Source: Deltaproteobacteria bacterium (lineage in GTDB: Bacteria > Myxococcota_A > UBA9160 > UBA4427). Taken from it: a stretch of 64,000 bases of DNA. Below are positions 56,192 to 62,653 of the stretch, piece by piece. How positions within the stretch are numbered: position 1 is the stretch's first letter; each line of letters opens with the position of its first letter. The position numbers were made by a program, and so were the translations under genes. The stretch covers positions 1-64,000 of the forward strand of contig JAJDAN010000089.1 in the NCBI GenBank assembly GCA_029261855.1. Direction: 5' to 3'. The notes below the pieces were generated by a model. It saw nothing but the letters and a program-made list of their open reading frames with translations. It ran no database searches and had not been told where the DNA came from.

Positions 56192-56473
56192 GCTTGTCTC
56201 CTTCCGGTGGCCCGGGTCGATTGCGCGGAGCGCGGCGTCAACGGGCGCCCGAGGACCGGCACTCGCGGATCCTAGGGAAGTGGAGCGATGCCGACGACGT
56301 CCTCGTGCTGAGGCGTCCCACAGCCGTGTAGGGCTGGTTCAACTGGAATCAAGAGGTCAGGCGTGTTGTCGCGAGTTCGAGCTCGGGTCTTTCTTCCGTC
56401 TATCGTGAGTTCGAGACCGGCCAATCGTTCTGCACCGCCGGGCTGTTCGCGCCCGGGCCGCTACGCTGCGAGC

Positions 56474-57838
56474 GTGCCCCCGACTGAAGACTCCGACCGG
56501 GATCCCAACTCGGATACCGACTCCGACTCCAACCTCGAACCCGACCTCAACGCCTCGCCTGCGCTCCGGCTGCGGCGTAGCCCGCTCGTGCTGGTCGCTG
56601 TCGGCGGGGGTGTGGCCTCCGGCAAGAGCACCGTGGCGGCGCGGCTCGCGCCCCTGCTCGGGGCCGTTCACTTCGGATCCGACGAAGTTCGAAACGAGGT
56701 GCCGCTGGACGGGCTCGACCCCTTCTCCCGCAGATTCGAGGACGTGGTGTACGCGGAACTCCTGCGACGCGCCGAGCGCGGCCTCGCGGACGGGCATTCG
56801 GTGGTCGTGGACGGCTGCTTTTCGCTGGCACACGAGCGCGAAGGCGCGCGTGCGATGGCGGTCAGGCACGGCGCGCCCTTTCTGTTCGTCGAATGTCGCG
56901 CGTCGCAAGCCGCGCTGCGCGAGCGGCTCGCCGCGCGCGACGCCGAAGTCGAGGAGCCCTTCTGGCAGACCGTGGCCGACGATCTTGCGCGGCGCTCCGA
57001 ACCTGTGGTGGAGCTGCCGGAAGACGAACACCGGGTCGTCGCCACCGACGAACCCGGCGACGAGGTTCTCGAAGAAGTCGCGGCACTCGTGCGGACGCGC
57101 CGCGCGCAGATCGCGATGCCAGAAGCCGTGACCTTCGACTGCTGGAACACCCTCATCTGCGAAGAAAACTGGGAACTCGCCCACGCGCTGCGAGTCACCC
57201 GGCTGCAGGAAGCCGCGGAGCAGGCGGGACGCCCGGTCTCGCCAGAAGAGGCTACGCGCGCTTTCGACTCGGCCTGGCTCCGACACATGCAACTGTGGCG
57301 CGCGGGGGAGGCGAGCGGTGCGCGCGAGGTCGCCCGATGGAGCCTCGCGGTGCTCGAACTCGAAGGAGACGAGCAGGCGCTCGATTCGCTGGTCAGCGCT
57401 TTCGAAGAGGCGTCGCACACCGGCGATGTGGTCGCGCTCGAGGGCGCTCGGGAAACGCTCGAAGCGCTGCGTGCGGCCGGGATCCCCTGCGCGCTCGTGT
57501 GTGACACGGGGCTGACGCCGGGCCGTGTGGTGCGCAAGCATCTCGACCGCCTCGGACTCCTCGAGAACCTCGCCGTGCAGGCCTTCTCCGACGAAGTCGG
57601 CGTCCCCAAGCCGGATCCGCAGATCTTTCGCGCAGCCCTCGAGCCGCTCGGGGTGAGCCCGGAACGCGCGCTCCACGTGGGCGACCTGCGCCACACCGAC
57701 GTGGCGGGTGCCCGCAGTCTCGCGATGCGCTCGGTTCGCATCCGGGCCAGCCATGACGACGAGTCGCCCCTGGCCGACGCCGACTTCGTCGTCGCCTCGC
57801 ACGCGGATCTGCGAGACCTGCTCGACCTCCACAAGTAA
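56474..57838 (+). CDS. P-loop kinase - HAD phosphatase fusion
   Basis: A 454-residue two-domain protein. Residues about 35-200: AAA/shikimate-kinase-like P-loop domain with Walker A GGGVASGKST, DEVRNEV and VVVDGCFSL. Residues about 213-454: HAD hydrolase with motif I VTFDCWNTLI, motif II VCDTG, motif III Lys in GVPKPDPQIF and motif IV HVGDLRHTD, plus a helical cap. The order kinase-then-HAD resembles T4-type polynucleotide kinase-phosphatase, but the HAD is of the phosphoglycolate-phosphatase type. The GTG at 56474 is preferred over a TTG at 56363; the N terminus is a Ser/Asp repeat. Substrate unknown. Confidence 0.75.
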   Translation: MPPTEDSDRDPNSDTDSDSNLEPDLNASPALRLRRSPLVLVAVGGGVASGKSTVAARLAPLLGAVHFGSDEVRNEVPLDGLDPFSRRFEDVVYAELLRRAERGLADGHSVVVDGCFSLAHEREGARAMAVRHGAPFLFVECRASQAALRERLAARDAEVEEPFWQTVADDLARRSEPVVELPEDEHRVVATDEPGDEVLEEVAALVRTRRAQIAMPEAVTFDCWNTLICEENWELAHALRVTRLQEAAEQAGRPVSPEEATRAFDSAWLRHMQLWRAGEASGAREVARWSLAVLELEGDEQALDSLVSAFEEASHTGDVVALEGARETLEALRAAGIPCALVCDTGLTPGRVVRKHLDRLGLLENLAVQAFSDEVGVPKPDPQIFRAALEPLGVSPERALHVGDLRHTDVAGARSLAMRSVRIRASHDDESPLADADFVVASHADLRDLLDLHK

Positions 57839-59226: not shown

Positions 59227-61941
59227 CTACTTCGCGGAGATCAGCACGAACGGGGACCAGTAGAAGGGGTTCGCGTAGGGACCCGTGCCTGCGCTCACGA
59301 CGCCTGGCCTCGGCGTTTTCGTCGCGATGCCGCGGGCGGCGCCGTCCTGGGACGCGCCTTCGGAACGCAGATCCCGCTGTGCTTGCCAGAGCGCGCGGTC
59401 TTCGGGCTCGCCCTGGCTCATGCGCGCGTAGAACAATTCCATCAGGCGCTGGGTCGAGAACGATTCAACGGGCCAGAGGGATACGACGACGCGATCCGAA
59501 CCGGCCAGCAAGAACGCTCGGCCCATGCCCATCAGGCCTTCGCCGTCGAAGTACTCGCCGTTGCCCGTGTTGCAGGCGGAGAGGACCGTCAGCCGCGCGT
59601 GAAGACCGAGCTTCGCCACTTCGTTCGCGGTCAAGAATCCGTCTTCCCCCTCCTCCCAGCCGAGCACCAGCGCGGGCTCGGACAGATTCGGCAGATCGTT
59701 GCTGATCACGCCGTGGGTGGCGAAATGGAAGTGGCTGTAGGACGCGAGATCTGGGTCGTTTTTGAGGCCGCTTTCCGTGGCTTCCGGCCCCAGCAGGAGC
59801 CGGCTCGACGCGCCGGATGACGAGCCGGACGAGAGCGCGCTCACGACCGCGCGCGCTTCGTCCGCGGTCTCGGGCAGCTGCTGGAAGTAGCCGAGCGAGG
59901 CGCTCCCGCGCGTCGCCATCAGCCCGCGGCCGATCTGTGCATCGATCACCGCCTCGGCATCGAAGACCGGATCGCCGAGGACGAACGCGCGCGGGGCGGC
60001 CGTTTGCGACGGGGCCGGCGCGTCGCCTGCGGCCAGCAACAGCGACAGCGACGGCACGAGCGTGACGACGGCCCGGTCGCTCAGCATACGGCCCGGGGCG
60101 TAGGACAGGATCGAGGGGGGCAGCGCACTCATCGCGCCATCGACCACCACATGCAGTCGATCGAAGGTGTCGAGGTCGCGCGCGGCAAAGCCGAGCAGCG
60201 ACCTGCCGAGCCGCTCGAAAGCGGCTCGATCGTAGGTCCGCGAATCGGCCAGCTGATTTCGGATTCGGAAGATCTCCGCGTCCCAATCCCCGCTCTTCTC
60301 GATCAACTGCACACGGGCCACGCGCTTCGAGACGACGATCGCGGCGAGATGGGAATCGAGGTCGAGCAGCTGCAGGACAGCCTCCCCGCTTCCGAGCCGG
60401 GCGACCAGTGCGGCACGAGAGAGCGACCCGGCGGATCCCGCATCGGTTCCGAGAAGCTCCTGGAATTGGCGCGCCCGCAGCCGTTCCGCCTTGACCAGGA
60501 TGCGATCGAACGCTCGCTCGGCCGCGCCTGGATCTCGACGCCCGTCTTCCGCGCGCAGATAGAGACGGACCGCACTGCGGATCGACCCGAGATAGGCTTC
60601 GCGCGCCTGGCCGCGGAAGAAATGCATCCGCTGTTCGAGCGGAACACTCGAGCGCTCCTGCTCGGACCACGCGATGTAGCCTTCGTAGAGCCCCTCCGCT
60701 TCGGCGAAGCGACCGAGCGCCTCGAGGATCTCCGCGCGCAACCGGTCGAGGGCTCTTTCGTCGTAGAGAAGACCGTCCTGCGCGACGAGCGCGGGGCTCA
60801 TCGACTGGTAGAAGGTCCGCAGGCCAGCGAAAGACTTCGACGCCTGCTCCGCCGCGGCGAGCGCACTCGAGTACTCGCCGAGCGCAAGATCGATTCGCGC
60901 TCGTTCCGTCGCTTCGACGATGGCATCGCGGGCGAGGTAGCGACGCAGGTCCGGAGGCTGATCCTGGATGGTGCCCCGAAGCGAGCCGACGGCCGGGTGG
61001 AACATCACGTGCAACGCGCGGTGGAGATCGCGCCCGTACTGGCTCGAATTCCAGTCGATCCTGCGCTCGTTGGCGAACACGATCGGATCCCGGGTTCGAT
61101 TGATCCGGTGAAGGCGAGACAGGTCGTCCCTCACCTTCTTCGCGGCCTGCACGTCGCCGAGTTCGGCAAGCCGAATCGCGAAGGGCGCCGCGATCTCGAC
61201 GAAGCGATAGCCCGAGCCGGGAGCCCAACCCCAGGATTCCGGGCTGGCCTCGAGCGACGCCAGATAGAAGTCGTACAGCCGGACGAGCTGCTTCGCGTCG
61301 GCGTAGTCGCCGGGACGGATCGCGACCTGACGCGCGTGGAGCGTGACGAAGACCACGGCATCTCGCGTCGATCCGGGTGGAAAGCGATCGAGCGAATATC
61401 CGATTCGCCCGAGGAAGGCCAGCTGGCCGGCGATGCGCTCGCGCGCCTGATCGATCATGCCGAGCCGCTGATAGAGCTCCACCAGGTCGAGGGTCAGGCC
61501 CTGCCAATGCTCGTAGTATCGCAGCCGCTTCGACTCGGCGACGGCTTCTTCGAGGACGGGAATGGCGAGCCCGGTCCGACCGGTCGCAACGAAGTAGTCG
61601 ACGAGCGCGTAATCGACGATCTCGACCTCGTAGCCCGAGGCGCCGGCGCCCGAGGTCACGCGAGCGGAGTTCGAGGGCGACGCGGCCCAGAGCTTCCGCG
61701 CCTTCTCGCGCAGCCGGGCGACGCTGTCGTCCGAAGCGCGCAGGTCCTCAGCACTCCGATCCGAGGCGTTCCCTTGCCCCTCGATTCGAATCTCCTCGGC
61801 GACGCCGAGCAGGCTCTTTTCCGTTGGGGTCCGGCCTTCGCGCAAGCCAGCGAGACAACCGGTCCCAGCGAGTGCCACGCACACGAGCAGGTGTCCGAGT
61901 CGAATCAGACGTCGGGATTCCGTCGATGGATCGGTCCGCAA
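59227..61941 (-). CDS. TPR-CHAT protease-like lipoprotein
   Basis: A 904-residue protein. Signal with lipobox ending at Cys29 (LLVCVALAGTGC). A long helical TPR-like region (about 100-560; LAIPVLEEAVAESKRLRYYE, RFAEAEGLYEGYIAWSEQE) is followed by a CHAT domain (about 590-904) with catalytic His in HFHFATHG and Cys in LSACNTGNGE, so the caspase-like dyad is intact. The start is a TTG five bases after the upstream lipoprotein's TGA; translational coupling replaces a clear ribosome site. It should be an outer-membrane or periplasmic-side protease. The CHAT call is firm; the envelope location follows from the lipobox. Confidence 0.85.
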   Translation of the reverse strand: MRTDPSTESRRLIRLGHLLVCVALAGTGCLAGLREGRTPTEKSLLGVAEEIRIEGQGNASDRSAEDLRASDDSVARLREKARKLWAASPSNSARVTSGAGASGYEVEIVDYALVDYFVATGRTGLAIPVLEEAVAESKRLRYYEHWQGLTLDLVELYQRLGMIDQARERIAGQLAFLGRIGYSLDRFPPGSTRDAVVFVTLHARQVAIRPGDYADAKQLVRLYDFYLASLEASPESWGWAPGSGYRFVEIAAPFAIRLAELGDVQAAKKVRDDLSRLHRINRTRDPIVFANERRIDWNSSQYGRDLHRALHVMFHPAVGSLRGTIQDQPPDLRRYLARDAIVEATERARIDLALGEYSSALAAAEQASKSFAGLRTFYQSMSPALVAQDGLLYDERALDRLRAEILEALGRFAEAEGLYEGYIAWSEQERSSVPLEQRMHFFRGQAREAYLGSIRSAVRLYLRAEDGRRDPGAAERAFDRILVKAERLRARQFQELLGTDAGSAGSLSRAALVARLGSGEAVLQLLDLDSHLAAIVVSKRVARVQLIEKSGDWDAEIFRIRNQLADSRTYDRAAFERLGRSLLGFAARDLDTFDRLHVVVDGAMSALPPSILSYAPGRMLSDRAVVTLVPSLSLLLAAGDAPAPSQTAAPRAFVLGDPVFDAEAVIDAQIGRGLMATRGSASLGYFQQLPETADEARAVVSALSSGSSSGASSRLLLGPEATESGLKNDPDLASYSHFHFATHGVISNDLPNLSEPALVLGWEEGEDGFLTANEVAKLGLHARLTVLSACNTGNGEYFDGEGLMGMGRAFLLAGSDRVVVSLWPVESFSTQRLMELFYARMSQGEPEDRALWQAQRDLRSEGASQDGAARGIATKTPRPGVVSAGTGPYANPFYWSPFVLISAK

Positions 61942-61945
61942 CGGG

Positions 61946-62653
61946 TCAGCCCGTGGTCGTCTTCAGCTTCGCGATCTGAAGCGTGACGCCCTCGAGCGCT
62001 TCATGGTTCTCGAGACCATGTGAGTACTGAACGGTCACCATCAGTATGGTGGAGCTTCCGGTCATTCCCATGTCCAGATAGGTCATGTAGGTCGTCTGGC
62101 CGAACATGGGATTGAGCTTCGGATCGTGGCTCTGCGATCGGGACCATTTCGGGTCGACGGCGAAGAGCGGAGCGATCCGCGCCACCAGGTCGGCGGCGAC
62201 CGCCTCCCGATTCGCGAAGGGCACATCGAAGTTGAAGGTCACATAGCGCTGGTCCGAGGTCGCACTCGGAATCACGACGACCTGTTCCCAGTAGCGGCCC
62301 GCCGCGTCAGGGATGCTGACCGTCACGTGACGAGCGCCGCCCGCGGCCGCCTCTGCGATCCGCAACAGCTCCAACTTGCTCTGTGACTGACTGAGGAAGT
62401 CCCCCTTCATCCAGTTCTCGATCATCGTCGTCTGCTCGGCTTCCGAGAAGGGGGCGGCCTGGATCGCAACGAAGTCCTGCGCCTGCGTGGCGAGGACTTC
62501 GACGACCGCAGCACGAACCGGGTCGGATCGATCCGCGGCGGCGATGACCTTGTCGACGCCACCGGTGTACGAAGACATACAAGCCGAGAATGCGAAGACG
62601 ACCAGAAGCAGGACGGATGTTCGATTCCGGCAAAGGCGAGACAATGGATTCAC
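61946..62653 (-). CDS. Lipoprotein, partner of CHAT gene
   Basis: A 235-residue lipoprotein: signal SVLLLVVFAFSAC with lipobox Cys25. An N-terminal mostly helical part (about 30-90; AAVVEVLATQAQDFVAIQAA) is followed by a beta-rich part (about 105-235: TVSIPDAAGRYWEQVVVIPS, QRYVTFNFDVPF, TYMTYLDMGMTG, ILMVTVQYSHG) I do not recognise. The start is a GTG with GGAGAACTTCTCGC. The CHAT lipoprotein starts four bases after its stop, so the two are made together. It may be the CHAT protease's substrate, inhibitor or sensor. Confidence 0.8.
   Translation of the reverse strand: MNPLSRLCRNRTSVLLLVVFAFSACMSSYTGGVDKVIAAADRSDPVRAAVVEVLATQAQDFVAIQAAPFSEAEQTTMIENWMKGDFLSQSQSKLELLRIAEAAAGGARHVTVSIPDAAGRYWEQVVVIPSATSDQRYVTFNFDVPFANREAVAADLVARIAPLFAVDPKWSRSQSHDPKLNPMFGQTTYMTYLDMGMTGSSTILMVTVQYSHGLENHEALEGVTLQIAKLKTTTG

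What the first reader, a model, noticed from the sequence alone, without database searches (positions are those of the whole stretch)
59227..62653. Two-lipoprotein operon with an envelope CHAT protease
An unrecognised lipoprotein and a 904-residue TPR-CHAT protein, itself with a lipobox (Cys29), are separated by four bases. The CHAT dyad (FATHG, SACNTG) is intact. CHAT proteases in known defence systems (for example type III-E CRISPR Craspase) are cytoplasmic; a lipid-anchored one coupled to a second lipoprotein suggests an envelope stress or programmed-death system not among the ones I know.
Basis: partly seen in the sequence, partly recalled or inferred. Interest (0 to 1): 0.6.

Follow-up and report, generated by a model that had tools for sequence, protein, structure and literature searches.

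The report
Exported CHAT protease beside orphan lipoprotein
Two neighbouring genes encode a caspase-like protease predicted to be anchored in the bacterial cell envelope and a small lipoprotein with no known relatives; exported proteases of this kind turn out to be common, so the pair is a new member of a known kind, not a new system.

Summary
A 235-residue lipoprotein gene (61946-62653, -) lies four bases upstream of a 904-residue TPR-CHAT gene (59227-61941, -); both match the lipoprotein pattern (Cys25, Cys29), the CHAT dyad H743/C790 is intact, and the small gene has coding-like codon usage. The small lipoprotein is an orphan: no homologue in any of 91 genomes of the class, a 379-genome phylum sample, viral contigs or plasmids, nor in a close-relative scan of GTDB; so 'always beside CHAT' cannot be tested. 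Exported CHATs do not sit beside small exported partners more often than other exported genes (8/57 versus 9/61). No sigma factor, CRISPR or defence gene was recognised nearby. Best reading: a lipid-anchored, TPR-gated CHAT protease whose adjacent lipoprotein is probably its ligand or substrate. Stress or death function is undemonstrated.

The parts
61946..62653 (-). Orphan small lipoprotein, 235 aa, GTG start, GGAG 10 nt upstream, lipobox FSAC (Cys25)
   Evidence: no family or homologue
59227..61941 (-). Exported TPR-CHAT protein, 904 aa, TTG start, lipobox GTGC (Cys29)
   Evidence: model, fold matches
61855..61941 (-). Predicted signal peptide and lipobox cysteine of the CHAT protein (residues 1-29)
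   Evidence: pattern; sequence
62579..62653 (-). Predicted signal peptide and lipobox cysteine of the small lipoprotein (residues 1-25)
   Evidence: pattern; sequence
60379..61617 (-). Helical-repeat (TPR-like) region, about residues 109-521
   Evidence: AlphaFold helices and PDB TPR-CHAT alignment; weak TPR hits in Pfam
59239..60201 (-). CHAT protease domain, residues 581-901
   Evidence: PF12770 E 9.4e-56
59710..59715 (-). Catalytic His743 and the following Gly744 of FATHG
   Evidence: invariant H743
59572..59574 (-). Catalytic Cys790 of LSACNTG
   Evidence: invariant

Best explanation
The pair encodes an exported, lipid-anchored TPR-CHAT cysteine protease and a cognate small lipoprotein held on the same membrane. 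Shown: gene arrangement, CHAT domain with intact His-Cys dyad, export-type N-termini by pattern, overall fold like the TPR-CHAT proteins Csx29 and DdvA. Inferred: the TPR arm binds a ligand and allosterically sets the CHAT active site, as in Csx29, and the active protease makes a limited cut in a protein of the envelope; the adjacent lipoprotein is most likely the ligand, inhibitor or substrate of this protease. What the signal is, and what the cut achieves, is not known.
For: CHAT domain and dyad; AF2 model from 24 homologues, pTM 0.75; best matches in PDB are Craspase TPR-CHAT/Csx29, separases and DdvA; the CHAT profile finds by sequence only DdvA in PDB, E 2e-4, with the ATHG His motif and a cysteine at the catalytic position (AACEGG) retained; the window CHAT falls in a six-member clade, support 99, all exported by heuristic, four with lipobox; lipoprotein and CHAT are 4 bp apart, 103 bp from TauD, and in G033 the TauD-amidohydrolase pair lacks both genes, so the two look like one cassette. 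Csx29 precedent for TPR-triggered cleavage of a co-encoded protein: PMC10028731.
Against: No homologue of the lipoprotein, so no conservation of the pair. Exported CHATs are not beside small exported genes more often than other exported genes (8/57 vs 9/61). The CHAT start codon is uncertain and its lipobox is weak. No activity data.
Confidence: 0.4

Rival explanations
1. The CHAT lipoprotein is an ordinary exported TPR-CHAT protein; the small lipoprotein is an unrelated orphan that merely shares its transcript.
For: Other clade members with readable flanks have no such neighbour; adjacency to exported genes is at background; orphan genes are common in large genomes (general knowledge).
Against: 4-bp spacing with a start without clear Shine-Dalgarno suggests translational coupling; both are predicted lipoproteins; both are absent together where TauD is conserved.
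Confidence: 0.35
2. Envelope signalling module like DdvA: the TPR-CHAT lipoprotein senses an external signal and feeds an ECF sigma/anti-sigma pair encoded elsewhere.
For: DdvA is a solved transmembrane anti-sigma CHAT protein (DdvS/DdvA in PMC4374960); sigma factors or anti-sigma-like genes lie beside some exported CHATs (L056, L058, L156).
Against: The window CHAT has no anti-sigma domain, and no sigma factor was recognised among the neighbours scanned, roughly 43-78 kb.
Confidence: 0.12
3. Envelope programmed-death or defence system, with the lipoprotein as toxin or immunity partner.
For: Caspase fold; in Propionivibrio (L053) a clade member overlaps a C14 caspase gene by 4 bp.
Against: No PADLOC match in the pair and none of substance in the neighbours; metabolic neighbourhood; single copy in the genome.
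Confidence: 0.08

Closest known systems
DdvA, Myxococcus xanthus transmembrane anti-sigma factor (PDB 8rot, 8rw5)
   Same: TPR-CHAT fold over 548 residues, Z 22, highest query TM-score listed (0.39); only PDB protein found by the CHAT sequence profile; His and Cys retained; membrane-linked
   Different: DdvA is a transmembrane anti-sigma factor with partner DdvS; the window protein starts with a lipoprotein-type signal, has no recognised anti-sigma domain and no sigma factor recognised nearby
Csx29 / TPR-CHAT of type III-E Craspase (8eey, 7y83 and others)
   Same: TPR arm plus pseudo-caspase and active CHAT; Z 25-26
   Different: bound to the Cas7-11 RNA-guided effector and not exported; the window protein has an export-type N-terminus and no recognised CRISPR gene nearby
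Propionivibrio dicarboxylicus exported CHAT lipoprotein (L053)
   Same: same clade, lipobox, about 37% identity
   Different: paired with an exported C14 caspase-DUF4384 protein, not with a small orphan lipoprotein
HetF of Anabaena
   Same: CHAT plus TPR, membrane protein (PMC8406250)
   Different: CHAT at the N-terminus, one transmembrane segment, divisome role

Membership tests
CHAT family (PF12770, clan CD cysteine peptidases) | CHAT domain above curated cut-off | tested here: met
   189.8 bits versus cut-off 24
CHAT family (PF12770, clan CD cysteine peptidases) | catalytic His and Cys | tested here: met
   H743 and C790 invariant in 24 homologues
CHAT family (PF12770, clan CD cysteine peptidases) | peptidase activity | not testable with these tools
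   needs protein
Bacterial lipoprotein (both proteins) | charged n-region, hydrophobic stretch, lipobox Cys at 15-35 | tested here: met
   PS51257-type pattern met by both; CHAT lipobox weak, start codon uncertain
Bacterial lipoprotein (both proteins) | lipidation | not testable with these tools
   needs labelling
Type III-E Craspase TPR-CHAT | TPR-CHAT fold | tested here: met
   Z 25-26 with Craspase chains
Type III-E Craspase TPR-CHAT | adjacent Cas7-11, Csx30, Csx31, CASP-sigma | tested here: not met
   adjacent genes are metabolic or transport genes; no CRISPR or defence family recognised
DdvA-type anti-sigma factor | anti-sigma domain and transmembrane segment before the TPR-CHAT part | tested here: not met
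   residues 1-29 look like a lipoprotein signal peptide and Pfam finds no zinc-finger or other N-terminal domain
DdvA-type anti-sigma factor | ECF sigma factor in the operon | tested here: not met
   no sigma factor among the adjacent genes
Known defence system | PADLOC match | tested here: not met
   no match for either protein; neighbours only a trivial desaturase-type hit

The most novel reading that the evidence does not exclude
The pair is a self-contained envelope protease-partner module: a lipid-anchored CHAT protease cleaves or is controlled by a fast-evolving lipoprotein on the same membrane, giving a caspase-like proteolytic switch outside the cytoplasm without a sigma factor or CRISPR trigger.
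Probability: 0.2. Interest if true: 0.6.

Novelty: new member of a known kind. Interest (0 to 1): 0.3.

Why it matters
It corrects the premise that bacterial CHAT proteases are cytoplasmic: in this sample most CHAT homologues with complete N-termini carry export-type N-termini, and DdvA gives a solved membrane-linked structure. If the lipoprotein is the substrate, the pair would be a compact system for finding what an envelope CHAT protease cuts.

Tried and rejected
Homologues of the lipoprotein: 192 relatives, 379 phylum genomes, all 91 class genomes held, GTDB pattern scan (close relatives only), IMG/VR, plasmids: none. Four weak hits (E 7e-4 to 0.03 per genome) were inspected and look like chance: different proteins, short alignments, none covering the lipobox. 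Structure of the lipoprotein from one sequence: pLDDT 43.5, not used. Comparison with small exported genes near other CHATs (L054, L130): no similarity. The idea that exported CHATs generally pair with a small exported partner: not above background. Promoter or terminator near the pair: no more than shuffles.

Full report
Observation. Two ORFs lie on the minus strand: 61946-62653 (235 aa, GTG start) and 59227-61941 (904 aa, TTG start), separated by CCCG. The small ORF is preceded by GGAG ten bases upstream; the TTG start has no clear Shine-Dalgarno, and the close spacing fits translational coupling (inference). Codon statistics support the small ORF in its own frame only (+0.21; the other five frames are negative), and third-position GC is 0.79, against 0.80-0.90 in the neighbouring genes measured.

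Export signals. A PS51257-type rule (the pattern as I know it) finds Cys29 in the CHAT protein (LVCVALAGTGC) and Cys25 in the small protein (LLLVVFAFSAC); 35 of 1506 ORFs in the collected loci meet it. The CHAT lipobox has G at -3 and is weak. If translation began at GTG 20 or 22 the signal would be lost. No trained predictor was available.

CHAT protein. PF12770 matches residues 581-901 at E 9.4e-56; TPR models match weakly. H743 and C790 are invariant in 24 homologues. The AlphaFold model made from that alignment has mean pLDDT 74 and pTM 0.75, with much of the CHAT half above 90. Foldseek and VIA-align put Craspase TPR-CHAT/Csx29 first (E 3.8e-13; Z 25-26), with separases and DdvA (Z 22, 548 residues) close behind. 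DdvA has the highest query TM-score of the listed rows (0.39). A profile of the CHAT part alone finds one PDB sequence, DdvA, E 2e-4, with an ATHG His motif and a cysteine at the catalytic position (AACEGG). The PDB title calls DdvA a transmembrane anti-sigma factor; PMC4374960 describes DdvS as an ECF sigma factor that becomes active when its anti-sigma DdvA is inactivated, by an unknown external signal. That the TPR-CHAT part of DdvA faces outwards is my inference from its place in the C-terminal part of a transmembrane anti-sigma factor.

Is an exported CHAT unusual? A GTDB scan gave 80 loci from named genomes. With a permissive heuristic, 56 of 70 CHAT proteins with complete N-termini look exported with at most one further membrane segment, against 72 of 240 other genes in the same loci (p 7e-14). 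The heuristic overcalls, so the contrast matters more than the fraction. A quick maximum-likelihood tree (the careful search did not finish) puts the window protein in a six-member clade (SH-aLRT 99) with proteins of Propionivibrio dicarboxylicus, a betaproteobacterial MAG, G012 (two) and G069; all six look exported and four have a lipobox.

The lipoprotein. No Pfam, NCBIfam, PADLOC or PDB match. No homologue in 192 relatives, in a 379-genome phylum sample or in all 91 class genomes held, none in GTDB contigs by the close-relative scan, viral contigs or plasmids. The best weak hit (E 7e-4 in one genome among 379) aligns to an unrelated ORF and is expected by chance. Its single-sequence model is not usable. 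It is therefore an orphan at this sampling, and metagenomes were not searched.

The pair as a cassette. In G033 the amidohydrolase-TauD gene pair upstream is conserved (TauD 84% identical) but both genes of interest are missing there. The same-genus genome G001 lacks both the lipoprotein and a detectable CHAT homologue. The CHAT is the only one found in the genome. The other clade members show no similar small lipoprotein: L053 has a C14 caspase-DUF4384 gene overlapping by 4 bp, L054 a small secreted protein 158 bp downstream without similarity, L032 and L034 no co-directional partner that I would call real, and the contig of L033 is too short to judge. Over all exported CHATs, 8 of 57 have a small exported co-directional neighbour, against 9 of 61 other exported genes (p 1.0). 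A general rule of paired lipoproteins is thus not supported.

Surroundings. Neighbours include FadE, a HAD-AAA fusion, HIBADH, TauD, an amidohydrolase, a sulfatase, an Na+/H+ antiporter and transporter genes; no sigma factor, CRISPR or defence family was recognised among those scanned.

Mechanism. By analogy with Csx29, where ligand binding to the TPR part repositions the CHAT active site and leads to one cut in a co-encoded protein (PMC10028731), the likeliest working is ligand-gated limited proteolysis on the outer face of a membrane, with the co-encoded lipoprotein as ligand, inhibitor or substrate. Shown: sequence, predicted fold, dyad, arrangement. Inferred: export, activity, partnership. 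Not shown: any link to stress, death or defence.

Noticed in passing
L053:4756-9092: Propionivibrio dicarboxylicus: exported CHAT lipoprotein gene overlaps by 4 bp an exported C14 caspase-DUF4384 gene, two caspase-fold proteases in one operon.
   Followed up: partly
L099:7210-7956, L103:4467-5174, L107:7200-7925: A conserved small secreted protein (LIVxEARGxGLK motif), no Pfam match for the one scanned (L107), follows an exported CHAT gene by -4 to +3 bp in three loci of one tree clade.
   Followed up: partly
L156:659-7437: G033: ECF sigma, zf-HC2-DUF928, VWA protein and two short ORFs with lipoprotein-like N-termini run convergent to a CHAT gene with a probable lipobox.
   Followed up: partly
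L106:1-14378: Saprospiraceae contig with four CHAT genes in tandem.
   Followed up: no
L056:5278-5880, L058:2302-3048: Sigma-factor-like genes lie beside exported CHAT genes; a Sigma70_r2 match was found for L058, the L056 gene was judged by eye.
   Followed up: no
56363-57838: Fusion of an AAA_33 kinase-like domain with a HAD hydrolase.
   Followed up: no
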